Of a DNA stretch of 64,000 bases, positions 3,225-60,331 are shown piece after piece; position 1 is the stretch's first letter, and every line of letters starts with the position of its first letter. The DNA lies in contig CAJJAT010000023.1 in assembly GCA_905182175.1 (NCBI GenBank), forward strand, positions 1-64,000. The letters run 5' to 3'. The DNA is from Flavobacteriales bacterium UBA1494. GTDB lineage: Bacteria > Bacteroidota > Bacteroidia > Flavobacteriales_E > Vicingaceae. The translations under genes were made by a program, and so were the position numbers. Under the pieces are notes generated by a model. It worked only from the letters and a program-made list of their open reading frames with translations. It had not been told where the DNA came from and searched no databases.

Positions 3225-3251
3225 GCGCCAACTTCCCTTCATTTTCCCTTT

Positions 3252-3569
3252 TCAAGCATCAAAGTAGTAATGCAAGTGATTCTTGCACTTGTCGTTGAAT
3301 TCATGGTCACAATCTGGACAACACTTTGCAGATAAATAAGCGTTAACCGTCATCTCGCTCCTGCAATTGCCGCACAACACCACCTTGTCGTCAAATTCTG
3401 ATTTGCTCCAAGTCTCAGCTTGGTGTTCCTCCATTTCGTCGTGGCATTTAATACACGCATAGAATTTATTGCAGCACTTCATTTTAATGGCGACTACGTC
3501 GGCCTGTGTGCAATGATGAATACAACGAGTTTTTCCATCAATTTGAAATCCAAAAATTATTTCATCCAT
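3252..3569 (-). CDS. CHY zinc finger protein
   Basis: A 105-residue cytosolic protein with many Cys/His pairs: TRCIHH, MKCCNKFYACIKCHDE, VVLCGNCRSE, AKCCPDCDHEF and a final CKNHLHYYF. This is the CHY zinc-finger pattern and the length of the stand-alone bacterial form. An open frame extends further upstream, but the ATG at 3569 gives the usual N-terminus MDEIIFGF and upstream residues look like translated remains of the neighbouring broken gene. Its start overlaps the end of that pseudogene (stop at 3562-3564), so the two were once translationally coupled. The protein appears intact although the genes upstream are not. Function in bacteria is unclear. Confidence 0.85.
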   Translation of the reverse strand: MDEIIFGFQIDGKTRCIHHCTQADVVAIKMKCCNKFYACIKCHDEMEEHQAETWSKSEFDDKVVLCGNCRSEMTVNAYLSAKCCPDCDHEFNDKCKNHLHYYFDA

Positions 3570-4072
3570 GATTAAATCTGTTTTCAGTTTTATAATCAAT
3601 GCCCTTTTTAAAAGCTTCAATTTTTCGGTAAATAATATAAAGAAGTTCGAACCCAAATACACCAAAAGAACAATCAACAATTTGCCATAAAATTAGAATT
3701 TCCATGAAGGAACCGGCTATAAAGGCAGTGGGTAAAATTAAGATACAAGCCTACATTCCGTAGCGTAAAACCCATCTATTCTCAATCGGTATTTTATACA
3801 CTTCAATATAAAACATGGCAATAATAATGTGGCCAAAAGCTGGCCAATCAAAACCGTAACTTAAAAAAAGGAGAACTGTCATTTATCTCTATTAAAGCAT
3901 TGCGTACTATATACAACCAGGAGTTTATATAACGTCCAAAGCTAAAATTTGATATTATAAATTGCAATTCACTCCCTAAAAAAAACGCTGTAACTCCACT
4001 AATTAGTAAGGCGATAATAAATAGAAAAACCAGCCTTTTAATTTCCCAAATTGCTTCTACCGGATTTTTCAT
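3562..4072 (-). pseudogene. Membrane protein gene broken by a frameshift and a stop
   Basis: The first 65 codons from ATG 4072 encode MKNPVEAIWEIKRLVFLF and one further membrane segment, then the frame shifts. At 3863-3869 a run of seven A (T on the coding strand) is one base too long for the reading frame. Removing one base gives a continuous SPFLSYGFDWPAFGHIII and onward. That second frame is cut by TAG at 3751-3753 but continues as ACILILPTAFIAGSF and IVDCSFGVFGFELLYIIYR to TGA at 3562-3564. The joined product would be a four-helix membrane protein of about 170 residues resembling conserved flavobacterial proteins of unknown function, from memory. A shorter reading from ATG 3882 avoids the frameshift but still meets the TAG. 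Confidence 0.65.
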
Positions 4073-4087
4073 AATTAGTTAGGTTAA

Positions 4088-4117
4088 GACCCACTCCGAA
4101 TAAATACGGAGTGGGTC
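4088..4117. terminator. Perfect hairpin between the membrane gene and creD remnants
   Basis: GACCCACTCCG and CGGAGTGGGTC form an 11-bp perfect stem with an 8-nt loop (AATAAATA). It lies 7 bases past the reconstructed creD stop and 15 bases before the next minus-strand start. The plus-strand 3' side is T-rich after a short gap; the minus side is not. It could terminate creD transcription or act as an intra-operon processing hairpin. Confidence 0.6.
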
Positions 4118-4124
4118 GGTTAGT

Positions 4125-5434
4125 TTATTTTTCATTTAATTTTAAGCCATACCAATCAACTTTTCTAGTAAAGAACATGGTTGCAGCCAATATAATTACA
4201 AGTCCTACACTGCCCATTAATAAAGCATAATCCGTTAATAATAACGTCACAAATAAGAATCAGTAGATTAAAATAAGCAGACTTACCAGAATCCAGGTCA
4301 TGCGTTTTGCTTTAAATATGCTCAAGGAATAGAGCGAAATCATAGCGACAATTCCAAAAGTGGAAAACCCGTAAGCGATGTTGAAGTCAGTATGTTCTGA
4401 TATGGCAACTAGCAGTATGTAAAATAGACACAGAGCAAGACCTACTAAAGCATATTGCAGTGGGTGAATTCGTTGGTTGTTAAGAATCTCAATTAAAAAG
4501 GTCAGAGCAATCGTCATGGCTGCGTACTTTACCTATCGAAAAGACTTTTGATAATCGTCCAACGGAACAATTAAGTCGACCCCAAAGCTTGACTCCATCA
4601 TTAGGTTAGAAAAACCACTTCTTACAAAAGACTAAGGGAATTTTTTATTGAGTTCCAACACTTTCCACTTTACTTGAAAGCCATCTTTAGAAACTTTTCT
4701 AGAATCGGGTAAAAATTTACCCTTGAAACTTGGAGCTTCCCAAGTAGACAGCAAAGACACTTCAGTAATTCCTCCTAAGGGTATAAAATTCAATTCCTTA
4801 CTTCCTTGTAAATCGAGGTTAAACTCAAAGCCAAATACTTCATTTGTATTGTCGCTCAATTCAGGAATTTTAATGGTTACACCAGACTTAATAATTGGAC
4901 TCAACGCAGAACCCAGTTCAATTTTCAAGGTCTTTTTATTCCACTTAAATTGTATCTGATTTTTAATCCCTCTCAAGTCGGCTATTCCCGTGGTCACAAA
5001 AGCCTTCTCGTAGTGAATTGCTATTATGCCTGTCGTTTCTGATTCCAAATCCAAATCAAAACTTCCCTTCTCGTTCATATCGGACTTGTACACAACCACC
5101 TCATAAATCCCTCTTCGTAACTTTTCAGGAATTACAGTTCCATCAATTTTTAAATCCTGAGGTAGTATGTTCCGTTCTTAACAATGATCCGTTCCGTTTC
5201 TCTTTCCATTTTAGAATAACTGATGGGTATGGTCAAAATAGATTCATTAATTTCCTGACTTCCTGCCCACTTTTCGCTCTCTTCCGCAACTGCAGCTAAA
5301 TTCTGGTTTTCTCGTTCTTTAAGAATACTTTTTATCATGGATGCGGGCAACATCAGCAAAAGCATTAATACAGTTGTAACAATGAGTTTAAAACCAATTG
5401 TATTGATAAAATCACCCTTCGTTGTGTCTCCTTT
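4125..5434 (-). pseudogene. creD: creD remnant (inner membrane protein CreD)
   Basis: Pieces of one CreD-family protein can be read in order on the minus strand. The N-terminal part (5434-5165) has LLLMLPASMIKSILKERENQ. A frameshift near 5161-5170 leads to LKIDGTVIPEKLRRGIYEVV and the periplasmic beta-rich domain. The rest stays in one frame through TAG 4632-4634, TAG 4533-4535 and TGA 4260-4262, giving VDLIVPLDDYQKSFR, then QRIHPLQYALVGLALCLFY and FFTRKVDWYGLKLNEK to TAA 4125-4127. The HPLQY..VGLALCLFY membrane block is typical of CreD. The start region is also unclear: the frame is closed by TAA at 5435-5437. With three nonsense codons and at least one frameshift the gene cannot make full-length CreD. 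Confidence 0.85.
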
Positions 5435-48270: not shown

Positions 48271-48344
48271 GGCCTCGTAGCATAATTGGATACTGCACCT
48301 CGTTACGGCCGAGGAGATTTGGGGTTCGAATCCCTACGAGGTCA
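48271..48344 (+). tRNA. tRNA-Arg (ACG)
   Basis: A 74-nt cloverleaf. The acceptor stem GGCCTCG pairs with CGAGGTC (one G-U pair), the anticodon stem is CCTCG/CGAGG with loop TTACGGC and anticodon ACG, and the T arm has GGTTCGAATCC. The discriminator base is A and no CCA is encoded. The promoter at 48250-48257 and the terminator at 48356-48385 bracket it. ACG is normally edited to ICG by TadA and reads CGU, CGC and CGA. Confidence 0.95.
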
Positions 48345-48355
48345 CTAGATAATAG

Positions 48356-49265: not shown

Positions 49266-49430
49266 ATGAATATTAGAAAACTCAAACCTATACTGTTCGT
49301 TATCTTATTGGTTGCTTTAATTTATGGCTTCCTGAATTTAATGGCTCACATATTCATCCCTCTTGTCCTTATTTTTGCGGCAATATTTATTTGGCGAAAA
49401 TACATTAGACCAAGAAGGATACATGACTGA
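49266..49430 (+). CDS. 54-residue membrane protein leading the polyamine operon
   Basis: A short frame: MNIRKLKPILFVILLVALIY, then FLNLMAHIFIPLVLIFAAIF and a basic tail WRKYIRPRRIHD. It predicts two membrane helices with a positive C-terminus. Its stop TGA (49428-49430) overlaps the speD ATG at 49423 by 8 nt, a typical sign of translational coupling. It is not a known family to me. Because the coupling and hydrophobic pattern are clear, I consider it a real gene. Confidence 0.6.
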   Translation: MNIRKLKPILFVILLVALIYGFLNLMAHIFIPLVLIFAAIFIWRKYIRPRRIHD

Positions 49431-49797
49431 ATTAGGATTACATATTTTGATGGAATTTAAAGATTGTTCCCCTGCAGAACTGAACAATTTAAAATTACTA
49501 GAATCAGAAATGAATCATGCCGCTACCATCGCAGGTGCAACTATCATTAAATCGGTATTTCACCAATTTTCTCCACAAGGAGTAACAGGGGTTGTGGTAG
49601 TAGCAGAAAGTCATTTAGCGATGCACACTTGGCCAGAACACAACTTTGCTGCTGTAGACTTTTTTACGTGTAACCACTCCATGGATTACCTAAAAGCTTA
49701 CGCCCATTTAGCCAAAATACTATCCTCGAAAACACACAGCTACGTAACTGTAAGAAGAGGATTAATTGATAAAGAAATTCCGGTTCATGAAGTATAA
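49423..49797 (+). CDS. speD: S-adenosylmethionine decarboxylase proenzyme
   Basis: A 124-residue prokaryotic-type AdoMetDC that makes the aminopropyl donor for spermidine. The start ATG 49423 gives MTELGLHILMEFKDCSPAEL. The self-cleavage site is AESHLAMHTWPE: Ser63 becomes the pyruvoyl group, with His68 and Cys83 (DFFTCN) as the processing and catalytic residues. It is the right length for the bacterial class 1B enzyme. It overlaps the genes on both sides, so its level is tied to the membrane partners in the operon. Confidence 0.95.
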   Translation: MTELGLHILMEFKDCSPAELNNLKLLESEMNHAATIAGATIIKSVFHQFSPQGVTGVVVVAESHLAMHTWPEHNFAAVDFFTCNHSMDYLKAYAHLAKILSSKTHSYVTVRRGLIDKEIPVHEV

Positions 49798-50617
49798 AAA
49801 GCTAAAACGAAGAGCTTACGAAATCCTTGAAAAAGGAGAAGAGAATGACAGCTGGAGCAGGCGGTTCGATCTCTTCATTATTTCACTTATTTTTTTAAAC
49901 ATCTTTGCCGTAATTGTTGAATCAGTTGATTGGATTGCGATAGCTTATACCAAAGAGTTCTACTACTTAGAAACATTCTCAATTATTGTATTCACGATTG
50001 AATTTATAGGAAGACTGTGGTCCATTACGGCCAACAAAGAACATGCTTCTCCCGCCTTAGGCCGACTAAAATACCTGTTTTCTTTTTATGGAATAGTAGA
50101 TTTAGTTGCCCTGTTACCTGCTTACATCCCTTTATTCTTTGGAGCAGATTTGAGGGTTGTTAGAGGAATTCGAATTTTAAGACTTTTCAGAATTTTAAAA
50201 TTATCGCGCTACAACAAAGCATTCATGCACATTAAAAGAGTAGTCGAAACCACAAAAGAGGAATTATTGATTTCATTAATAGCTGTGCTCACACTTTTGG
50301 TAATTGCTTCAAGCCTGATGTACTTTACGGAGCACGATGTTCAACCCGATGTTTTTCCAAACATTCCTGCTACCATGTGGTGGGGAGTAGCCACATTAAC
50401 AACCGTTGGTTATGGAGATGTTTATCCCATCACCGCAGCAGGGAAAATTATGGCTGGAGTAATGGCTATCTTAGGAATTGGAATTTTTGCATTGCCAGCA
50501 GGAATTTTAGCGAATGGTTTCAACAATACAATTGAAGATTCAGTAGAGGAAAAAAAAGGGAAGAATAAAAAGAAAACACCGCAATGTGACCATTGTGGAA
50601 AAGAGGTAAAAACGTAA
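49787..50617 (+). CDS. Voltage-gated-type potassium channel
   Basis: A 276-residue six-helix channel. ATG 49787 overlaps the speD stop by 11 nt. An S4-like helix has regularly spaced Arg (RVVRGIRILRLFRILKLSRY) and the pore filter is LTTVGYGDVYP (TVGYGD, potassium-selective). The C-terminus is a short basic tail with PQCDHCGKEVKT, a CxxC pair that may bind zinc. Channels of this type are a recurring partner in bacterial spermidine-synthase/DUF350 operons, from general knowledge. Polyamines block potassium channels, so an intracellular polyamine level could gate it; that is inference. Confidence 0.9.
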   Translation: MKYKKLKRRAYEILEKGEENDSWSRRFDLFIISLIFLNIFAVIVESVDWIAIAYTKEFYYLETFSIIVFTIEFIGRLWSITANKEHASPALGRLKYLFSFYGIVDLVALLPAYIPLFFGADLRVVRGIRILRLFRILKLSRYNKAFMHIKRVVETTKEELLISLIAVLTLLVIASSLMYFTEHDVQPDVFPNIPATMWWGVATLTTVGYGDVYPITAAGKIMAGVMAILGIGIFALPAGILANGFNNTIEDSVEEKKGKNKKKTPQCDHCGKEVKT

Positions 50618-50628
50618 AACAAGGAAAT

Positions 50629-51162
50629 ATGGGATTATTTGATTTTTTTAAAAAAGATAAAAAAGAAGAACCTAAAGTTGATTTTACAGTCAACGAGATG
50701 AAGAAAGGTTTCATTGTAGACTATTCAATGAAAAGTTGGGAAGTGAAAAAAGTTTCGAATTACAATTGGGGGAATAACTACTACAGCAAAGAATATATTC
50801 TGGATGCCGGAGATGAAAAGATGTTCTTGAATGTTGAAGATGACGATGGATTAGTTTGCTCGATATGGTCTTCAATTGACCTTTTCGATATTGACCAAAA
50901 CTTAGCTATTGAAATTAGAACGAACGATGAAGCTCCAAATAAATTACTCTATGCAAATAAAACGTACGTTCGTAAAGAATCTAGCCAAGCAGTTTGCGTA
51001 GAAGAAGGGGTCGAGGGAGAAAGTAAATTAGTAAATTGGACGTATCAGCATTCCGAAAGCAAAGAATGCATTTCCATTAACCGTTGGGGAGAGGAAGAAT
51101 TTGATGCATCTGTTGGCACGTACATTAAAGCGAGAGAATTCTCAAACATATTACCGCGATGA
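50629..51162 (+). CDS. DUF4178-family protein
   Basis: A 177-residue soluble protein from ATG 50629, with a basic-hydrophobic start MGLFDFFKKDKKEE that could touch the membrane. The DUF4178 domain shows SWEVKKVSNYNWGNNYYSKE, YILDAGDEKMFLNVEDDD and, near the end, CISINRWGEEEFDASVGTYI. It is small, beta-rich and of unknown function; DUF4178 genes commonly sit next to spermidine synthases and DUF350 genes. It overlaps the following lipoprotein by 4 nt. Confidence 0.82.
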   Translation: MGLFDFFKKDKKEEPKVDFTVNEMKKGFIVDYSMKSWEVKKVSNYNWGNNYYSKEYILDAGDEKMFLNVEDDDGLVCSIWSSIDLFDIDQNLAIEIRTNDEAPNKLLYANKTYVRKESSQAVCVEEGVEGESKLVNWTYQHSESKECISINRWGEEEFDASVGTYIKAREFSNILPR

Positions 51163-51872
51163 TAAAACAACTTACAATAAAAACAATAGGACTTACTTTC
51201 TTTAGTGGCGCCCTGCTCTTATTGCTTGCTTCCTGCGGAAGCAGAGAATTTAAAAAATCTCCTTTAGATCGTTTCATTGTTGAATTTAAAAATGAACTAG
51301 CTTATTCTGTCGTCTTATCTGACATGGATGTAGAGGGCACATTTTTCAAAACATACAAGCACAAGTATCAAATTATTCGGGAAAAAGAGGGTCTTCCTTT
51401 TGATACAGAATCTGAGTGGACAGAAGTTGACAAAGATTTTTTCGGAAGGAACGAAGAAAATTTAGGCATGACAATCCTAGAAAAAAATAAAGACGGAAAA
51501 ATATCTAAAACTGCCGCTCCTCCCGGCTACCAGTATGTAGGAAATAAGCAATATGGTGAATGGAGAACAAACAACGGCACTAGCTTTTGGGCTTTTTACG
51601 GACAATACATGTTTATGTCTCATTTGTTTGGCATGAATAGACGCCCAATCTATCGGAGTCATTATAATTCTTACACCACAGGAGGATATTATGGAAGCCG
51701 AGGATATTATGGCCCTAAGGTTGGAAAGTCCAACATGTATGGAACGAGTTCTGCCCAAACAAAAAAATCTAACCCCGGCTTCTTTCAACGAAGAGCAACA
51801 AGGTCGGGTTGGTCTTCTTCTTCTAGAAACAGTTCGGGAGGAAGGTCAAGAGGTTCAGGTTTCGGCAAATAA
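51159..51872 (+). CDS. Lipoprotein with low-complexity Gly/Ser/Tyr tail
   Basis: A 237-residue lipoprotein (MIKQLTIKTIGLTFFSGALL, lipobox LLASC). A folded part up to about residue 125 (LDRFIVEFKNELAYSVVLSD, DTESEWTEVDKDFFG) precedes a tail rich in Tyr, Gly, Ser and Arg (GGYYGSRGYYGPKV, RSGWSSSSRNSSGGRSRG). The tail may be flexible or mediate association. In E. coli the related yjf locus also has a small secreted protein beside the DUF350 gene, but homology is not claimed. It overlaps the DUF4178 stop by 4 nt (ATGA). Confidence 0.72.
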   Translation: MIKQLTIKTIGLTFFSGALLLLLASCGSREFKKSPLDRFIVEFKNELAYSVVLSDMDVEGTFFKTYKHKYQIIREKEGLPFDTESEWTEVDKDFFGRNEENLGMTILEKNKDGKISKTAAPPGYQYVGNKQYGEWRTNNGTSFWAFYGQYMFMSHLFGMNRRPIYRSHYNSYTTGGYYGSRGYYGPKVGKSNMYGTSSAQTKKSNPGFFQRRATRSGWSSSSRNSSGGRSRGSGFGK

Positions 51873-51899
51873 AGGACATAACGATAAAAATAGAATAAA

Positions 51900-52769
51900 A
51901 TGGAAATCAATTTTTTAGCCATAGCGGATAGTGTCATAACTGGATTAATCTATCTACTCTTGAGTTTTGCGCTTTTTCTTGTGGGAAAGAAAGTGTACCA
52001 ATTACTTCACAAGAATATTCGAATAGATCATGAACTGGTAGAAAAGGATAATCTCGCTTTTGCCTTTGCAAATGTTGGATACTATGCCGGTTTACTGATT
52101 GCTATTTCCAGTGTTTACGAAGGCGACGACATTGCCCATATTGTTGATAGTATTATTAGTATCCTGATATATGGGTCTTTGTCCATCGTGCTTCTCAATT
52201 GCTCCATTTTTATTTCAGACAAGGTTTTGCTGAGAAAGTTTTCAGTGGAAAAAGAAATTGTTGAAGATCAAAATGTGGGAACTGGAGTAATCGAAGGTGC
52301 GGTTTGTATTGCAAATGGATTAATTATACATGGCGTATTGGCCGACAACCAAGACAGTTTTATTAATATTTTAATTTTGTGGGCACTCGCCCAAGTAGCT
52401 CTGCTAGTAGTAGGTTGGGTGTACAACCTCATTACTCCTTACGACATTCATGACTACATTGAAAAAGACAACGTAGCCGTTGGAATTGGTTTTGCAGGAG
52501 CACTAGTAGCCATTGCCAACTTAATTCGATTCGGCGCACAGATTGATGCCGACAGCTGGATTGTGGTAGGAGAAAACATGCTACTAGAAACAGGCATTGG
52601 CCTTTTAATGCTGCCTTTGGTGCGTTTTTTAACTGATAAAATACTGCTTCCCGGAAGAAAGCTAACAGACGAGCTAATTAACCAAGAGAAACCAAATAAC
52701 GGTGCTGGAATGGTAGAAGCATTTGCCTATATTGGCGGCTCTATGCTTATTTGCATTAGTTTTTTATAA
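51900..52769 (+). CDS. Double DUF350 membrane protein
   Basis: A 289-residue protein with about eight membrane helices arranged as two DUF350 units, residues about 10-135 and 150-285. Each has a helix followed by the typical EKDNLAFAFANVGYYAGLLI or EKDNVAVGIGFAGALVAIAN motif, in which the Asp-Asn pair lies near the membrane. DUF350 (YjfL) proteins occur with spermidine-synthase-like and glutathionylspermidine-type genes. It lies 27 nt after the lipoprotein and 18 nt before the spermidine synthase. Its function is unknown; a pore or transporter for polyamine-related compounds is inference. Confidence 0.85.
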   Translation: MEINFLAIADSVITGLIYLLLSFALFLVGKKVYQLLHKNIRIDHELVEKDNLAFAFANVGYYAGLLIAISSVYEGDDIAHIVDSIISILIYGSLSIVLLNCSIFISDKVLLRKFSVEKEIVEDQNVGTGVIEGAVCIANGLIIHGVLADNQDSFINILILWALAQVALLVVGWVYNLITPYDIHDYIEKDNVAVGIGFAGALVAIANLIRFGAQIDADSWIVVGENMLLETGIGLLMLPLVRFLTDKILLPGRKLTDELINQEKPNNGAGMVEAFAYIGGSMLICISFL

Positions 52770-52787
52770 GCAAATTGTCTTTTTAGA

Positions 52788-54317
52788 ATGAAAAAAAGTC
52801 TCTGGCTTAAAGTTTCCATTTTTGCTACTGGCATATCGGGTCTAATCGCTGAGTTCATTCTATCTACGTTAGCATCCTATTTTATAGGCGACAGCATTGT
52901 GCAATGGACCATTGTACTTTCCATTATGCTATTTTCAATGGGTGTGGGAAGCCGCCTTAGCAGGTTTATTACAAAAAATCTGCTGCTCACTTTTATTCTT
53001 ATTGAATTTGCCCTCTCCCTATTCATTAGCTTTTCTCCGTTAGCAGTGTATGCCATTGCAGGACAAACGGCTTACATTCATTTATTAATCTACGGGCTAG
53101 CCTTTATTGTTGGTCTGCTGATTGGTTTTGAGCTTCCATTGGCTACTCGTTTAAATGAAACGCATGAAGAATTAGATAAAAACATTTCCAATATTTTATC
53201 TTGGGATTACACCGGAAGTCTAATTGGCGGACTCTTATTCGCCTTTTGGGGTTTACCTCACCTAGGCATCACCAATACAGCTTTTGTATTTGGAATTCTC
53301 AATTTCATAGTAGCATTGTTGCTGTTTTGGCAATACAGCGATAAATCTTTCTTGAAGCAAAAAGGAATGCTTTTAGTTGGAATTTTTCTAGCAGCGACCT
53401 TAGGTCTTGGCTTCTACTTTTCAGAAGAGATTGTGTTGTTTGGAGAGCAGTCTAGGTACAAAGACAAGATTATTTTTCAAAAACAAAGCCGCTATCAGAA
53501 TATTGTAATCACCCAATGGGAAGAGCATTACTGGTTGTTCATTAACGGCAATCAGCAATTGAGTACACTAGACGAGTTCTTGTATCATGAACCTATGGTA
53601 CACCCCATTATGGAACTAACCAAGGAACATCAAGATGTCCTAATTATTGGCGGAGGAGATGGATTTAACGTAAAAGAATTACTAAAATACCAAGATGTAA
53701 AAAACATCACCTTGGTGGACTTAGACCCTGCCATGACAGATGTTGGTCTTCACCACAAGGGCATGTTAGCGTACAACGATTCTGCACTTCACCACCCTAA
53801 AGTGACTATTTTAAATGAAGATGGTTTTAATTTCCTAGAGAAGTCCGACTCCTTTTACGACCTGATCATTGTTGATTTACCGGATGCCAAAAGCATTGAT
53901 TTAAATAAATTATACACCGTAGAGTTTTATCAAATGGCGCACCGCTTGTTGCGACCTCACGGTCATTTTATTACGCAAGCCGGAAGTCCTTATTATGCGA
54001 CAAAAGCCAATTATTGTATTGACAAGAGCATGCAGGCTGCAGGTTTCTCGACACTTTCATTGCACAATCAAGTACTTACTTTAGGTGAATGGGGCTGGAT
54101 TGTTGGGAGTAAATCTTACACCAGAGAGCAGATGCTGAGTCATTTAAAACAAGCAAACTACGGAGACATTCCCACCAAATGGTTAAACCAAGAAGCCATG
54201 CAATTGATTACCTCTTTTGGCAAACCGCTTTTTGATACTTCAGGAGTTGAAGTCAATACCATTAATTCTCCAGTTTTATACCGTTATTATCTAAATGGAA
54301 ATTGGGATTTGTATTAA
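52788..54317 (+). CDS. Membrane-anchored spermidine-synthase-like enzyme, copy 1
   Basis: A 509-residue protein. The first 215 residues form about seven membrane helices (LIAEFILSTLASYFIGDSIV, FELPLATRLNE). Residues 220-500 are a polyamine aminopropyltransferase: VLIIGGGDGFNVKELLKY (SAM-like donor site), TLVDLDPAMT, IIVDLPDAKS with the catalytic Asp, and GEWGWIVGS. It should transfer an aminopropyl group from decarboxylated AdoMet made by the SpeD of the same operon. The acceptor (putrescine or a modified substrate) is not clear. A close paralogue faces it at 56965-58506. Last gene of a seven-gene operon. Confidence 0.88.
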   Translation: MKKSLWLKVSIFATGISGLIAEFILSTLASYFIGDSIVQWTIVLSIMLFSMGVGSRLSRFITKNLLLTFILIEFALSLFISFSPLAVYAIAGQTAYIHLLIYGLAFIVGLLIGFELPLATRLNETHEELDKNISNILSWDYTGSLIGGLLFAFWGLPHLGITNTAFVFGILNFIVALLLFWQYSDKSFLKQKGMLLVGIFLAATLGLGFYFSEEIVLFGEQSRYKDKIIFQKQSRYQNIVITQWEEHYWLFINGNQQLSTLDEFLYHEPMVHPIMELTKEHQDVLIIGGGDGFNVKELLKYQDVKNITLVDLDPAMTDVGLHHKGMLAYNDSALHHPKVTILNEDGFNFLEKSDSFYDLIIVDLPDAKSIDLNKLYTVEFYQMAHRLLRPHGHFITQAGSPYYATKANYCIDKSMQAAGFSTLSLHNQVLTLGEWGWIVGSKSYTREQMLSHLKQANYGDIPTKWLNQEAMQLITSFGKPLFDTSGVEVNTINSPVLYRYYLNGNWDLY

Positions 54318-54371
54318 CGTAAATCCAGATTATTGAACGGATTGAAAATTTCCAAATTTTAATAGTTCAAC

Positions 54372-55886
54372 CTACTCATCAAACAACGCCTTTGCAGCTT
54401 GAATTCCTGAGTCCATTGCATCAAACATCAACGGAAATCTTCCTGAATCTACTCCTGCAAAAGCTAATCCGTCTTTGACTAAGGTTCTTTCTTTTGTGAT
54501 ATAATTTGGCGAAGGGATAGGCATTGCATGTCCCATTAATTTAATGTGAACCTGCTTTACAAAGGGACGAATGTTCTCATCGTAATACTGCGAGATTTTC
54601 TCTATTGTTTCTTCAACCAACTCATTTGCGTCTTCCTCTAAATTCTCTATTTGATAATGATGAACTTCTGGAAAGCAGAAATACGCAGTCAGCACCCTAG
54701 GTTGGTTTTTTGTTTGAATAGTTGAATCCACAAACCCAAGAAAAGTATTGTCAGGCGAGAGGAAATCGTTTTGCCATTTACTGTCTTTCAAAGAGCACTC
54801 TTCCATTTCAATGTTCATGACCACCCAAGGAGCATATTGAATGTCACTAAAACTGGCATATGATTCGGGGTGTATATACTTTAAGGCATGTTTTTGTCCT
54901 GCATAAATTACCTGATTCGCTTTGTATTGCTTTCGAGTCGAATTCTCATTGTCATAAACGTCCACTAACCAATGATCTTTTTCTTTGATCAACCCGAATA
55001 CCAAATGGTTGCTTTTTAATTGATTTGGATTGAGCTGTTGCATCATTTTTTGAATGAAGTAAAAGTTTCCTTGCGGCGGTGAAAGCAGCTCAATCTCTTT
55101 TCCATCGTAATAAGGTCGGGACTTGTAATAATGAATTCCTGCCAAAGCAGAAACTTGAGTGGAGGTTCCACCCCAATCGTCCAACATTTGGTAATCTATT
55201 GACTCCATAAACTTATCGTCAATCGGCAAATATTTATTCAAGTAGTCGTAAAAAGTGAGTTGATCTAAATGATGTAATTCTTTTGAAATAAGCGTTGAGG
55301 GCAATGTAAACTGACCTTCATACTCTTTGAGTAATGCTACAAAATTTTGGCGTAGCTCAGTATTTTCTAAAACAGACTCTCGCTTATTTCCATTGTAGTA
55401 ACAAGCCTCCTCTAGCCCGGCAGGAATGAGGTACTCTTTGTCTTTAAACTCCCACAGTTTACTTTTTGCATTGAAGTCAATAATGTTCAACTTTTGCAAC
55501 AACTCTAACCCATCTTTACCATAATGGTTTGGGTAGGCTAAATCGTAATGCGCTCCTTGAGAATACAATTGATTGTTAATGGAAATAGCACCGGAAGTAC
55601 CGCCGAAATTAGTATCTAGTTCACACACCACGTAATTATCTGAAGGTAGAGAACAAGCAGCAGCTAAACCAGCAATACCTCCACCCACAATTAAAGTATC
55701 TATCGTTTCAGTGCTGCTAACAGGCAAAGAGATCGCAGTTCGCACTTGGTGACCAACTTTTCGATTAGAGTCAACAAAAATTGGAATTTTCCTGCTTTTT
55801 TCCCATTCTTTTTGAGGAGTGGAATTTCTACAGGCTGCTAAAAAAATCAAGCCTCCTCCTACTTTTAAAAAACTTCTTCTATCCAT
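54372..55886 (-). CDS. Exported FAD-dependent oxidoreductase with Tat signal and lipobox
   Basis: A 504-residue amine-oxidase-like flavoprotein. The start MDRRSFLKVGGGLIFLAAC holds a twin-arginine motif and a lipobox ending at Cys19, so it is probably exported folded through Tat and lipidated. The FAD motif TLIVGGGIAGLAAACSL is at residues 64-80, and the C-terminal KDGLAFAGVDSGRFPLM closes the FAD site. Export as a folded cofactor enzyme fits Tat. It is the third gene of the minus-strand operon, 4 nt after a membrane protein, and beside two aminopropyltransferases. A polyamine or related amine substrate is likely but not proven. Confidence 0.8.
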   Translation of the reverse strand: MDRRSFLKVGGGLIFLAACRNSTPQKEWEKSRKIPIFVDSNRKVGHQVRTAISLPVSSTETIDTLIVGGGIAGLAAACSLPSDNYVVCELDTNFGGTSGAISINNQLYSQGAHYDLAYPNHYGKDGLELLQKLNIIDFNAKSKLWEFKDKEYLIPAGLEEACYYNGNKRESVLENTELRQNFVALLKEYEGQFTLPSTLISKELHHLDQLTFYDYLNKYLPIDDKFMESIDYQMLDDWGGTSTQVSALAGIHYYKSRPYYDGKEIELLSPPQGNFYFIQKMMQQLNPNQLKSNHLVFGLIKEKDHWLVDVYDNENSTRKQYKANQVIYAGQKHALKYIHPESYASFSDIQYAPWVVMNIEMEECSLKDSKWQNDFLSPDNTFLGFVDSTIQTKNQPRVLTAYFCFPEVHHYQIENLEEDANELVEETIEKISQYYDENIRPFVKQVHIKLMGHAMPIPSPNYITKERTLVKDGLAFAGVDSGRFPLMFDAMDSGIQAAKALFDE

Positions 55887-55890
55887 GGGT

Positions 55891-56961
55891 TTATTTCGAA
55901 AAAAAAGTTTTTAAATGAGGGTTAGAATCGTTCATCTTCCAAATAAATCCATCTATAATATAATGTGTTACCTGCGGCAATGACAACAAAGTTAAGGCTA
56001 AAGCTTGCCCTTGAGGATGACCTAAAACAGCTGCAGGATATTCCCAAATAGCAGAAAAGAAAGTTCCTTTCTCCCGGTTAAGTAACATGTCCCATAAGTA
56101 CTCTTCACCAAAAGCCAGTAAAAATGAAAACACTAGAATGCTGCCCACAATCCAATACATTCTAAGAGCGGAGAAACGCCGCTCTGCATGGGGCTTTTGG
56201 AGTTGATAAAAGATAATTAATGCAAGGTAAGGTATACCATGAGCTACAACATTGGTCAGCGTAAAGGCAAGGTCAGAGTTAAACCAAACAATGCCTAAAT
56301 ACCAATTTACCAAAGTAGTTAACATCCACAAAACCCTTCCGTAAGAAAGACGGTTAACCCCTTTTTTGACCAACAAAAACTCTTCTGCCAACCAACCTAA
56401 AATTGAACCCCAATACAGCGCTTCAAAAATTACTCTGAGCACCGGGGAAAAAGAAAGAGACAGATCAATAAAGTCTCCTTCGACAAACCAAACAAAATTT
56501 CTACTGTGAAAGTGCCAAAAAATGACTGGATAAATCATGCTAAAATAAAGCACCCATTTATCTTTAAAAAAGCGGTGCGCTTTTACAGTTTTAGCTTTTG
56601 CCGTATAAATGGCGAAAAAGCCATACTGCTGTTTCATAAAATGAAACACTGCTAAATAAGCCAAAATAACCCAAAAGAAAGTGGTCGATTCTCTGGCAAT
56701 TCCAAAAAGTACTACCAATGCAACTAGCGGAGCTAAAATCAAAACTGTTTTATGGTTTTTAAATTCTACAGGATCAAGGTAAGTTCTAAAAATGGTACTC
56801 CAAACATGACTCACATCTATTCCTAAAATAAAAATCACCCAAACCCAGATGGGCACTTCGCTAGCTAGCCAACTTTCAGGAAGCAGAAAAAGTACTACCC
56901 AAATCAACCAGACCGGTATGAAAAGGAGCAAGATGTCTTTGTATTTTCCAAATAGCCACAT
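55891..56961 (-). CDS. Polytopic membrane protein of unknown function (356 aa)
   Basis: I do not recognise the family. About nine to ten membrane helices are seen (MWLFGKYKDILLLFIPVWLI, VWVIFILGIDVSHVWSTIF, FFWVILAYLAVFHFMKQQYG). Conserved-looking polar residues lie in or near helices: Asp and His in IDVSHVW, His and Gln in FHFMKQQYGF, a His pair in WHFHSRNF, and VVAHGIPYLALI. Clustered His in the membrane may bind metal or a quinone/heme. It sits 3 nt after the second SpeE-like gene and 4 nt before the FAD oxidoreductase, so it may work with that enzyme, for example as its electron acceptor. That is inference. Confidence 0.7.
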   Translation of the reverse strand: MWLFGKYKDILLLFIPVWLIWVVLFLLPESWLASEVPIWVWVIFILGIDVSHVWSTIFRTYLDPVEFKNHKTVLILAPLVALVVLFGIARESTTFFWVILAYLAVFHFMKQQYGFFAIYTAKAKTVKAHRFFKDKWVLYFSMIYPVIFWHFHSRNFVWFVEGDFIDLSLSFSPVLRVIFEALYWGSILGWLAEEFLLVKKGVNRLSYGRVLWMLTTLVNWYLGIVWFNSDLAFTLTNVVAHGIPYLALIIFYQLQKPHAERRFSALRMYWIVGSILVFSFLLAFGEEYLWDMLLNREKGTFFSAIWEYPAAVLGHPQGQALALTLLSLPQVTHYIIDGFIWKMNDSNPHLKTFFSK

Positions 56962-56964
56962 CCT

Positions 56965-58506
56965 TTATAAAAATTTTGCCCAAGTTCCGTCCAAATAGTA
57001 CTTGTAAAGCACAGGGTTGTGAATAGTATTTACCTCAACACTGTCCGCATTTACTAAATCTCTTCCAAAAGAAGTCATCAATTGCATCGCTTCTTTGTTG
57101 ATCCATCGCACGTCTAATGTGTCAAAATTCTTCTCCAACAAGCTTTTTTTCATGACTTCGCTACTCATTTGCTTGGAGCCAATAATCCAGCCCCACTCGC
57201 CAAAAGAGTATACATGATTGTGAATGGGCAGCGTTTGAAAACCAGATGCTCCCAACGTTTTTTCGATGGAACGGTATGCTTTGGTGGTGTAATAAGGACT
57301 AACCGCTTGCGTAACAATATGCCCTAAGGGACGCAGTTTTTTGTTGCACAAACGGTAAAATTCTTTACTGTAAACTCGATTAAGGTCAATACTCTTTGGA
57401 TCGGGAAAGTCAAGAATCATGACATCGAAAAATTCATCGGATTGCTCCAAGTATTGAAAGGCATCCTGGTTCACTACTTTCACTTTTGGATCATAGTATG
57501 AACTGTCGTTCATTTTCGTAAAAATTTCATTGGTTTTCCCTATCCGTGTCATTTCCGGGTCAATGTCTACTAGCGTGATTTGTTCTACGCCTTTGTATTT
57601 TAAAACCTCTCTAATGGCACAGCCATCCCCCGCCCCCAAAATAAGCACATGTTTGGCATATGGAGTCAATTGCATTACAGGATGCACTAGTGGCTCATGG
57701 TATTGCCATTCATCGAACGTGCAGAGCTGTTTGCTGCCATTCAAATACAACCAATATTCCTCTTTCCATTGCGTAATGGTAATTTTTTGATACTTCGTTT
57801 GTTTTGAAAAAACTACCTTATCATCGTAACGTTTTTGCTCTCCATATAATACAATGGCGTCTGCATTGTAGCTTAGAAAAGTCATAAAAATGAGCAAACT
57901 TGGAATGACAACAAGAAATGCTTTTTGATACGTTGAATCTATGTGTTTTCGAAGTCGAATAAAAAGGGCCACTGCTACTAAGAAGTTTATTCCACTCAAT
58001 ACAAAAGGAGTGTGGGTTAAACCGAGATACGGAAGACCCACAAACACGAAGAAAATTCCACCGAGTAAACTTCCGTAGTAGTCGTTTTCTAAAACTCCTG
58101 CAATGTTGGTTCGCAATTCTTCATTTTCTTCATTTACCCGGGTAACTAGCGGAATTTCCATTCCAATTAAAAGGCCAATGGCCATGGCAAAACCGTAAAT
58201 AATTACTGCAATGTATTCTGTATAGCCCATAAAAAAATAAGTACACAAGGCTGCAGAGGAAGTCAAAAAGGTGAGTAAAAACTCTGCTATTAGAAATTTC
58301 TCTAATATCTTCTCCGTATATCGACTGCTCAGTCTGCTTCCCAACCCCATGGCAAATAGCATAGAGGAAAGAATCATGGTCCACTGAAAAACAGAGTCGC
58401 CTAAAAAATAAGTCGCTAAGGTGGATAAAATATATTCTCCAACAATACCTGATAAGCCTGTGGCAAATAAAGCGAGTTTAAGAATTCGAGATTTATTTTT
58501 AGTCAA
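56965..58506 (-). CDS. Membrane-anchored spermidine-synthase-like enzyme, copy 2
   Basis: A 513-residue paralogue of the enzyme at 52788-54317, with the same plan: about seven membrane helices (GIVGEYILSTLATYFLGDSV) followed by a transferase domain with VLILGAGDGCAIREVLKY, TLVDIDPEMT, ILDFPDPKS and GEWGWIIGS. The GGGDG motif of copy 1 is GAGDG here. It starts at TTG 58506 (MTKNKSRIL), supported by a -7 box 35 nt upstream. First gene of an operon with the membrane protein and FAD oxidoreductase. The pair of divergent paralogues suggests different acceptor substrates. Confidence 0.87.
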   Translation of the reverse strand: MTKNKSRILKLALFATGLSGIVGEYILSTLATYFLGDSVFQWTMILSSMLFAMGLGSRLSSRYTEKILEKFLIAEFLLTFLTSSAALCTYFFMGYTEYIAVIIYGFAMAIGLLIGMEIPLVTRVNEENEELRTNIAGVLENDYYGSLLGGIFFVFVGLPYLGLTHTPFVLSGINFLVAVALFIRLRKHIDSTYQKAFLVVIPSLLIFMTFLSYNADAIVLYGEQKRYDDKVVFSKQTKYQKITITQWKEEYWLYLNGSKQLCTFDEWQYHEPLVHPVMQLTPYAKHVLILGAGDGCAIREVLKYKGVEQITLVDIDPEMTRIGKTNEIFTKMNDSSYYDPKVKVVNQDAFQYLEQSDEFFDVMILDFPDPKSIDLNRVYSKEFYRLCNKKLRPLGHIVTQAVSPYYTTKAYRSIEKTLGASGFQTLPIHNHVYSFGEWGWIIGSKQMSSEVMKKSLLEKNFDTLDVRWINKEAMQLMTSFGRDLVNADSVEVNTIHNPVLYKYYLDGTWAKFL

Positions 58507-58540
58507 TTGAGACCTACTTTAAGTGAACATTCGGTTGGTA

Positions 58541-58548
58541 CAAATTTA
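58541..58548 (-). promoter_or_regulatory. -7 element TAAATTTG of the second SpeE operon
   Basis: Perfect TAnnTTTG on the minus strand, 35 nt before the TTG start at 58506. Confidence 0.6.
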
Positions 58549-58828
58549 AACGTTCTGTTGCTGATTATTTTTTGAAAATCGAATTTAGATTTATAATAGC
58601 AACCGGGCTTTTTTTTCTGATTTATTTATCAAGAAAGGGAGGGAAATGATTCACTAGCAAGATCAATTTAAGATTCTTTTGTGCTTCACCGCCATCTCTG
58701 GTATTTCATACTTTTCCGCCTTTACCATAGAGTAGAGCTTCAGAGAATTCTTTAGATTAAAATTGAGCAATTAGTTCCCAAACGGAGTAATTTCAGTTTT
58801 AACACAAGAATTAATACACACTTTAGTT

Positions 58829-59227
58829 TTAATCCCTCTCCTCTCTCATATAATCCATCAAACTTTGAGCATCTCTTTGAAATCGTTTACTAAAATCAGT
58901 TGAGAAGGAGTCTATTATTTTAGTTTCATTTTCTTCTACGCCATTTGCTGCTTTTGCAATACTTTTCATTGCCTCTATGAATTCTGAATAAATAGGCGTT
59001 GCTCCATAATCGTAGCAAAAATTGATACCCTTGTTATATATTTCTTTTAAAGACGATTTCTTACTCTCCTCGTATTAAAATAACCAACTTATTTTATCAC
59101 CATACGGATGATTTTTAAACAATGCCTTGAATGTGGTTCTTTCTTCCGCTTGAATTACTCCGTCTGCCATCGCCACAGCCTACAACAGTTCACGTAATAC
59201 TTCGGATAATTTTTCTTCTTTTTTCAT
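58829..59227 (-). pseudogene. TerB-like protein gene with two in-frame stops
   Basis: From ATG 59227 one frame runs 133 codons to TAA 58829-58831, broken by TAG at 59180-59182 (codon 16) and TAA at 59075-59077 (codon 51). Read through, it gives KLSEVLRELL, AVAMADGVIQAEERTTFKAL, FKNHPYGDKISWLF, then INFCYDYGATPIYSEFIEAM and STDFSKRFQRDAQSL. The MADGVIQAEE segment and helical make-up fit a TerB-like fold. There is no frameshift. Each stop can be explained by a C-to-T change in a Gln codon. The gene is inactive unless the stops are suppressed. Confidence 0.7.
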
Positions 59228-59528
59228 GAGTTGTAATTTCCTATCAAGATACCTAATAATTTAAAATTAGCGGATTTCGTTGAAGTGTACAATTGGAGTT
59301 TCAAAAAAGAAAAATTACCCACACAAAATAACCGCGCAGCGTAACTTTTGTCCTGTGATGGAAAGAAAGGTCGGACTGTTCATCGAAACTCCCCACTATT
59401 CTTTAATGAAATAGCGAGGAGAGAGAAATTAAATGAAACCGTATCCCAACTACTCATTTCAGATTCACCTCTTATTGGGTTCTTGAACCTATTGAGTTTA
59501 TAAGAGGCAATAGGTTTATAATGAGACA

Positions 59529-59566
59529 GGTGATAGCTCGAATCTCTCCGGCTTTACAGACTGACC
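59529..59566 (+). repeat. Degenerate direct repeat, copy 1
   Basis: Reads GGTGAT, then AATCTCTCCGGCTTTACA and GACTGACC. A second copy with a 7-base longer middle is at 59681-59725. Both resemble the T-arm and acceptor side of a tRNA but do not fold as one. Confidence 0.45.
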
Positions 59567-59680
59567 AAAATCGCATAAAGTCATATTTAAGTTGAAAATA
59601 AAACGAGTTTACTCAAATCCATTTTTCAGCTTAAATCTGAGGTGCAACGCACGTTTGGTTTTGGTTCCATGAATTAAAAA

Positions 59681-59725
59681 GGTGATCAAACCGAAAGGTA
59701 ATCTCTCCTGCTTTACAAATTGACC
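59681..59725 (+). repeat. Degenerate direct repeat, copy 2
   Basis: Reads GGTGAT, then AATCTCTCCTGCTTTACA and AATTGACC, parallel to 59529-59566 about 150 bases earlier. Confidence 0.45.
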
Positions 59726-59914
59726 CTTTATTCACCTGCGGAATGTTGGGTTACAATAAAAGAGTTCTTTAAAATATTGTTCAATTGCACTAAAGACGGT
59801 TAATCCCTTAACTGATCAAGACCTCTTTAATATTTCTGGATAACATCTGAGTATTGTGTGCTATGCTTTAACAATGTGCTACTTGACCCTTTAACATTAA
59901 TCTCCCTTTGTCGG

Positions 59915-59942
59915 TCGAAGGTTCGAATCCCTCCCTTGCTCA
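59915..59942 (+). other. tRNA 3'-end-like fragment
   Basis: TCGAAGGTTCGAATCCCTCC followed by CTTGCTCA has the T-loop GTTCGAATCC and an acceptor-like end, but no matching 5' half lies within 90 bases upstream. It may be a decayed tRNA or a remnant of an integration event. Confidence 0.35.
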
Positions 59943-60331
59943 TGATATATATTCAGTAGGTTACGAAAAAAAGAATGAGCGGTGCGGGTTTGACTCTCAT
60001 CATACAATTAGGCTGTATTTAACTCAATTGATAAATCAATTGAAACAAATTTTCTCGAAGTAATTAGTGTGAATACAAAGCCATCTAAAAAAATGATCTT
60101 CCTTAGCTAACCAAAAAAAAGAGGTTACTTGAAAATATAATTTAGAGTCCAATTAAAATACAGTTAAACCTGACACTTCGACTCTGTTCAACAAGGCAAG
60201 TTCCGAATAGCACCAATTAAAAATCTGTATCTTTTGTGACTTGTAGAAATTAATGAATACCTTATCTTTATTAAAATAAAGAAGCTATTCAAAGAAACCT
60301 TCTCTTACATTAAATCATAAACTAAAGCAAC

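What the first reader, a model, noticed from the sequence alone, without database searches (positions are those of the whole stretch)
49266..58506. Membrane-centred polyamine region with two opposing SpeE-like enzymes
Seen directly: SpeD, potassium channel, DUF4178, lipoprotein, double DUF350 and a membrane-anchored aminopropyltransferase form one operon; a second such enzyme, a His-containing membrane protein and an exported FAD oxidoreductase form another that converges on it. Known: SpeD/SpeE, DUF350, DUF4178 and channels recur together in bacteria. The expected ATP-grasp (glutathionylspermidine-type) ligase is absent; an oxidoreductase takes part instead. Inference: aminopropyl products are made at the membrane and may be exported and oxidised.
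Basis: partly seen in the sequence, partly recalled or inferred. Interest (0 to 1): 0.6.

Follow-up and report, generated by a model that had tools for sequence, protein, structure and literature searches.

The report
Membrane aminopropyl-transfer module with oxidase pair
This Bacteroidota-like genome carries a known kind of membrane-bound enzyme cluster that moves aminopropyl groups, joined to two uncharacterised partners (an exported flavin enzyme and a new family of four-histidine membrane protein) that sit beside it in many bacterial phyla, which points to an unknown chemical step at the cell membrane rather than ordinary polyamine metabolism.

Summary
The plus-strand operon (2-TM ORF, SpeD, K+ channel, DUF4178, lipoprotein, double DUF350, 7TM-SpeE_A) converges on SpeE_B, a four-His membrane protein (HisMem) and a Tat-lipoprotein flavoenzyme (FADox). 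In other phyla the parts form one operon, SpeD-DUF4178-DUF350-SpeE-FADox-HisMem: 56 of 80 HisMem loci carry SpeE and FADox alongside. In a 296-genome phylum sample all 9 strong HisMem hits sit beside SpeE and FADox. SpeE_A and SpeE_B are separate lineages; B goes with HisMem. The host has its own homospermidine-type route elsewhere, so this is unlikely to be housekeeping polyamine synthesis. The core (7TM-SpeE, DUF350, DUF4178, lipoprotein, often CesT/Tir-PspA) is published; no held paper found mentions FADox or HisMem there. FADox has the MAO/protoporphyrinogen-oxidase/SpdH fold. HisMem has no Pfam, curated NCBIfam or PDB-fold match and four invariant histidines at similar membrane depth. Best reading: SpeE aminopropylates an unidentified membrane-proximal acceptor; FADox with HisMem oxidises the product on the outer side. 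Acceptor, oxidation and cofactor are inferred. New variant of a known kind.

The parts
49266..49430 (+). 54-aa two-TM small protein, first gene of operon A, overlaps speD start
   Evidence: similar ORFs upstream of speD in L035 and L037
49423..49797 (+). SpeD, class 1b-type S-adenosylmethionine decarboxylase; ESHLAMHTWPE cleavage motif intact; only copy found in genome
   Evidence: PF02675 1.2e-35, TIGR03330 over cut-off; single copy
49787..50617 (+). 6-TM voltage-gated-type potassium channel (TTVGYGD filter)
   Evidence: PF00520 2.1e-29; start ATG at 49787 preferred, open frame from TTG 49766
50629..51162 (+). DUF4178 protein
   Evidence: PF13785 8.9e-19; start MGLFDFF preferred over TTG 50593
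51159..51872 (+). lipoprotein (lipobox LLASC), Ser/Gly/Arg-rich C-terminus
   Evidence: no Pfam; homologues in the same place in L035-L055
51900..52769 (+). double DUF350 (YjfL-type) membrane protein
   Evidence: PF03994 6.3e-51, 2 stretches
52788..54317 (+). SpeE_A: 7-TM N-terminus fused to aminopropyltransferase domain
   Evidence: NF002956 over cut-off, PF01564; lineage without FADox/HisMem
54372..55886 (-). FADox: predicted Tat-exported lipoprotein with flavin amine-oxidase/protoporphyrinogen-oxidase/SpdH fold
55891..56961 (-). HisMem: ten-TM membrane protein with invariant D49, H52, H107, Q111, H241, Y245, H333, D337; undescribed family
56965..58506 (-). SpeE_B: 7-TM + aminopropyltransferase, lineage linked to HisMem/FADox
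   Evidence: NF002956 over cut-off; tree

Best explanation
The locus is one functional module for aminopropyl transfer at the inner membrane plus oxidation of the product. SpeD decarboxylates S-adenosylmethionine. The 7TM-SpeE enzymes use dcAdoMet to aminopropylate an amine acceptor at or in the membrane (acceptor unidentified, probably not bulk putrescine). FADox, exported by Tat and held as a lipoprotein on the outer side of the inner membrane, oxidises the aminopropylated product (or its acceptor). HisMem, a ten-helix protein with four invariant intramembrane histidines, is its membrane partner, most likely binding heme or iron and taking electrons from FADox or completing the oxidation. 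DUF350, DUF4178, the lipoprotein, the channel and (in relatives) CesT/Tir-PspA tie it to envelope stability. Shown: gene content, conserved linkage, co-divergence, lineage split, SpeE motifs, predicted fold and export signal of FADox, invariant His, presence of separate polyamine-route genes. Inferred: acceptor, direction, oxidation chemistry, cofactor of HisMem.
For: One operon SpeD-DUF4178-DUF350-SpeE-FADox-HisMem in 8 class-mates (L019-L026) and in records labelled Planctomycetota, Alphaproteobacteria, Verrucomicrobia, Cyanobacteria/Melainabacteria, Leptospiraceae and others (56 of 80 HisMem loci have both SpeE and FADox; 40 of 51 with long flanks). In 296 phylum genomes all 9 strong HisMem hits are among the 22 with full-length 7TM-SpeE, beside FADox (hypergeometric 1.2e-11, phylogeny not corrected). 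Co-divergence r 0.97/0.92/0.89. SpeE keeps donor-site and catalytic motifs. FADox fold: MAO A, putrescine oxidase, SpdH, PPOX at E 1e-18 to 1e-21; profile hits putrescine oxidase, Fms1, SpdH; 35 of 44 members PF01593. HisMem pLDDT 91.5; the four His lie in helices 2, 4, 8 and 10 at similar depth. Independent homospermidine-type route in the genome. SpeD single copy.
Against: No substrate or product is known. FADox's superfamily also holds desaturases and dehydrogenases of unrelated substrates, and window FADox alone does not match PF01593 at E 0.1. The SpeE core occurs without FADox (10 of 22 sampled genomes) and HisMem occurs alone (9 of 51 long-flank loci), so neither strictly needs the other. 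Which side of the membrane SpeE's catalytic domain faces was not determined. Co-divergence partly reflects shared vertical descent. No coordinates were available to measure His-His distances.
Confidence: 0.5

Rival explanations
1. Polyamine export and oxidation: SpeE makes spermidine/homospermidine-type polyamines at the membrane; they leave the cell and are broken down or oxidised by FADox as a surface spermidine dehydrogenase.
For: SpeE passes the curated 'polyamine aminopropyltransferase' model; FADox has SpdH/putrescine-oxidase fold.
Against: Separate homospermidine-type route present; the literature held describes other aminopropylation substrates for these operons. From memory, Li et al. 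2019 reported that such fusions do not complement a spermidine synthase mutant.
Confidence: 0.2
2. HisMem is an independent membrane oxygenase or hydroxylase (non-heme metal) and FADox a dehydrogenase; together they tailor a lipid or isoprenoid, and SpeE adds aminopropyl as one decoration of that lipid.
For: HisMem occurs alone in some genomes; FADox superfamily includes phytoene desaturases and PPOX; four His plus two Asp and one Gln resemble a metal site.
Against: No homology to the carotene dioxygenase Blh or to any Pfam oxygenase or desaturase; no recurrent lipid genes noticed among the operon parts (flanks not surveyed systematically).
Confidence: 0.2
3. FADox/HisMem are not chemically linked to SpeE; they share only a membrane-stress regulon.
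For: Core operon occurs without FADox in 10 of 22 genomes; solo HisMem exists.
Against: Tight adjacency in distant phyla, one SpeE lineage tracking HisMem, strong co-divergence.
Confidence: 0.1

Closest known systems
CesT/Tir-PspA operon with 7TM-spermidine-synthase fusion, DUF350, DUF4178 and lipoprotein (PSP survey, mSystems 2024, PMC11237479)
   Same: 7TM-SpeE, double DUF350, DUF4178, lipoprotein; relatives carry CesT_Tir_1 (PF22550) and PspA directly upstream (L035/L153, L152)
   Different: Window lacks the dyad at this place (own copy on contig C1); has SpeD and a K+ channel; joined to SpeE_B-HisMem-FADox, which the passages of that paper read here do not mention
GspS-type ATP-grasp / K+ channel / DUF350 operons (same paper, third group)
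   Same: K+ channel, DUF350, polyamine-metabolism link (SpeD)
   Different: No PF03738 ligase found anywhere in the genome
Spermidine dehydrogenase SpdH and flavin polyamine/monoamine/putrescine oxidases
   Same: Fold and FAD domain
   Different: 12-17% identity; Tat lipoprotein; substrate unknown; mostly found beside SpeE in the loci surveyed
Brp/Blh carotene dioxygenase (PF15461)
   Same: Multi-TM protein with several conserved His
   Different: Profile-profile probability 3.9%: no homology detected

Membership tests
CesT/Tir-PspA 7TM-SpeE/DUF350/DUF4178 operon | 7TM domain fused to spermidine-synthase domain | tested here: met
   NF002956 536.7 and 545.1 bits, cut-off 472
CesT/Tir-PspA 7TM-SpeE/DUF350/DUF4178 operon | 8TM YjfL-type DUF350 protein | tested here: met
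   PF03994, two stretches in 289 aa; TM count itself not measured
CesT/Tir-PspA 7TM-SpeE/DUF350/DUF4178 operon | DUF4178 protein | tested here: met
   PF13785 8.9e-19
CesT/Tir-PspA 7TM-SpeE/DUF350/DUF4178 operon | Ctha_1186-type lipoprotein | tested here: inconclusive
   Lipoprotein present in the right place, no Pfam model to test it against
CesT/Tir-PspA 7TM-SpeE/DUF350/DUF4178 operon | CesT/Tir-PspA dyad in the operon | tested here: not met
   Absent beside this locus; dyad lies on contig C1 of the same genome; met in same-genus and same-family relatives (L152, L153)
GspS-type ATP-grasp polyamine operon | ATP-grasp glutathionylspermidine-synthetase-like ligase | tested here: not met
   No PF03738 in genome; control rings in E. 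coli
Housekeeping spermidine synthase pathway | SpeD/SpeE the genome's route to triamines | tested here: inconclusive
   Alternative SpeA-agmatinase-DHS-homologue cluster present; products not measurable here
Flavin amine/polyamine oxidases (MAO/PAO/SpdH fold) | Two-domain FAD fold of the superfamily | tested here: met
   Foldseek E 1e-18 to 1e-21, TM about 0.6-0.68; PF01593 in 35 of 44 members
Flavin amine/polyamine oxidases (MAO/PAO/SpdH fold) | Oxidises an amine | not testable with these tools
   Needs an assay
Brp/Blh carotene dioxygenase | Sequence homology to PF15461 | tested here: not met
   hhalign probability 3.9%; none of the 63 members matches any Pfam model

The most novel reading that the evidence does not exclude
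HisMem is a new family of membrane-integral heme or metal oxidoreductase that, with the lipoprotein flavoenzyme FADox, carries out a previously unknown oxidation of an aminopropylated membrane compound made by 7TM-SpeE: a new envelope modification pathway spread over many phyla.
Probability: 0.3. Interest if true: 0.75.

Novelty: new variant of a known kind. Interest (0 to 1): 0.55.

Why it matters
The substrate of the 7TM-SpeE/DUF350 systems is an open question. The conserved FADox-HisMem pair suggests what happens next (a redox step on the outer side of the membrane) and so gives a handle: the product should carry an aminopropyl group whose oxidation state depends on two named genes. It also brings to light an undescribed membrane protein family with over 500 relatives and an invariant four-histidine set.

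Tried and rejected
Carboxyspermidine route (TIGR01047) in host: only weak hits to a decarboxylase relative (probably lysA), none over cut-off. ATP-grasp elsewhere in genome: none. HisMem as Blh relative: rejected. HisMem fold in PDB: no match, best probability 0.15 among those listed; sequence-profile hit to a channelrhodopsin at E 0.037 taken as chance. FADox paralogues in own genome: none. Weak, distant HisMem homologues (L027-L032) searched for a SpeE/FADox context: none. Literature for FADox/HisMem in this context: none found in the held library; Li et al. 2019 itself is not held. Single-sequence alignment meant to map SpdH's D282/Y443 gave mainly FAD-domain matches and no SpdH.

Full report
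Observation. The ten-gene locus is as described, with refinements: a 54-aa two-TM ORF is the likely first gene, SpeD starts at ATG 49423, and the two SpeE are the only Spermine_synth matches in the genome. SpeD is single-copy, so both SpeE would share its dcAdoMet. No GSP_synth ATP-grasp ligase was found in the genome.

Linkage. A phylum sample of 296 genomes gave nine strong HisMem hits, own genome included. In the eight others the gene order is SpeD-DUF4178-DUF350-SpeE-FADox-HisMem on one strand. Some labels are of metagenome bins and may be wrong. In the 296-genome sample 22 genomes have a full-length 7TM-SpeE; 12 have FADox beside it and 9 HisMem, and every strong HisMem is in this set. 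The modules are therefore nested: core, core+FADox, core+FADox+HisMem. Co-divergence over 55 loci plus the window is high.

The convergent layout. It recurs in L035 (the same region as L153/G424), L037, L038, L039 and, with the second SpeE truncated and divergent (L046, L047) or outside the contig (L045), in bins labelled Cyclobacteriaceae, Bacteroidia and Ekhidna. In the host's family the locus is patchy: 4 of 46 genomes have full-length copies, and all four have both SpeE. A tree puts SpeE_A with copies of channel/lipoprotein/DUF350 operons lacking FADox (the wider A grouping is weakly supported, 0.29; its closest part 0.97), and SpeE_B in a clade (support 0.97) nearly all of whose members sit next to HisMem. 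In Crocinitomicaceae-type bins a single B-type SpeE serves lipoprotein, DUF350, HisMem and FADox together. So the window holds two separate lineages side by side rather than a recent duplicate (51% identity).

Relation to known systems. The core, with CesT/Tir-PspA upstream, is group two of the PSP survey (PMC11237479), which cites Li et al. 2019 on a polyamine-independent role of AdoMet decarboxylase and mentions 'aminopropylation of other substrates'. Relatives L035, L037, L038, L045, L046 and same-genus L152 carry CesT-like and PspA-like genes before the operon (confirmed as CesT_Tir_1 in L035 and L046, and as PspA_IM30 in L035); several multi-phylum operons carry a Band-7 protein before DUF4178. 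In the host an XRE-CesT-PspA set sits on contig C1 instead.

Not housekeeping polyamine. The host has a SpeA-like decarboxylase, agmatinase (over TIGR01230 cut-off) and a deoxyhypusine-synthase homologue in a row on contig C13. The eight compared genomes also have a second decarboxylase of this type and the DHS homologue, and none has an nspC over cut-off. That DHS homologues (SpeY) can make homospermidine is from the literature (PMC10407285) and not tested here.

FADox. AlphaFold model pLDDT 91.4. The whole fold matches protoporphyrinogen oxidase, MAO A/B, putrescine oxidase and SpdH. 35 of 44 family members match PF01593. The Tat motif and Cys are frequent but not universal (a crude pattern found a twin-Arg-like motif in 54 of 68). 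The substrate class is not settled by this.

HisMem. No Pfam match in 63 members and one weak NCBIfam hit; no PDB fold. Model pLDDT 91.5 with ten long helices. Invariant D49, H52, Y61, H107, Q111, H241, Y245, H333, D337, W341 in all 63, including distant stand-alone homologues. By the helix limits and positive loops, the four His fall in helices 2, 4, 8 and 10, all running outside to inside, about 11-17 residues from the outer end (inference). That is a pattern expected of a buried heme or metal site; distances could not be measured.

Mechanism. Shown: the linkage, single SpeD, intact SpeE donor-site motifs, export signal and predicted fold of FADox, invariant His. Inferred: SpeE aminopropylates a membrane-proximal acceptor; FADox oxidises the product outside; HisMem is the electron or oxygen partner. 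I put the functional unity of the module at about 0.8 and the full oxidation model at 0.5.

Verdict. Known core, new conserved redox extension with an undescribed membrane family: a new variant of a known kind, worth testing.

Noticed in passing
L151 (own genome contig C1, bases 2178-4154): XRE-type regulator, CesT/Tir chaperone and PspA sit apart from the SpeE locus here, whereas the same-genus genome L152 has rhomboid-XRE-CesT-PspA-SpeD-channel in a row; the window has rhomboid directly followed by the SpeD operon, suggesting loss or relocation.
   Followed up: partly
L027, L031 and other Bacteroidota (L028-L030, L032): Distant HisMem homologues (about 380-446 aa, extra His) stand alone; in L027 and L031 they lie beside purF-like, engB-like and serA-like genes, a conserved neighbourhood of unknown meaning.
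   Followed up: partly
L040, L044 (labelled Thalassovita/Thalassobius bins): Solo HisMem 46-50% identical to the window's lies between the same two genes in both, near an aspS-like and a hemA-like gene; the taxon labels look inconsistent with Bacteroidota-like content.
   Followed up: no
L046:8773-9984, L047:8778-9989: Second SpeE is shortened (~403 aa) with degraded GGGDG and YHE motifs in L046: possibly a pseudo-enzyme kept next to HisMem.
   Followed up: partly
window 58507-60331: About 1.8 kb without any ORF of 60 aa or more after SpeE_B: looks like decayed or non-coding DNA.
   Followed up: no
window 48271-48345: tRNA-Arg (ACG) lies about 1 kb upstream of the patchily distributed locus; possible integration site, not tested.
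   Followed up: no
own genome contig C14:147742-148515 (L137): Brp/Blh carotene dioxygenase gene (PF15461), hinting at a rhodopsin-bearing host.
   Followed up: no
L084:2919-6749: DUF4178-DUF350 pair duplicated in tandem within the six-gene operon (Solitalea).
   Followed up: no
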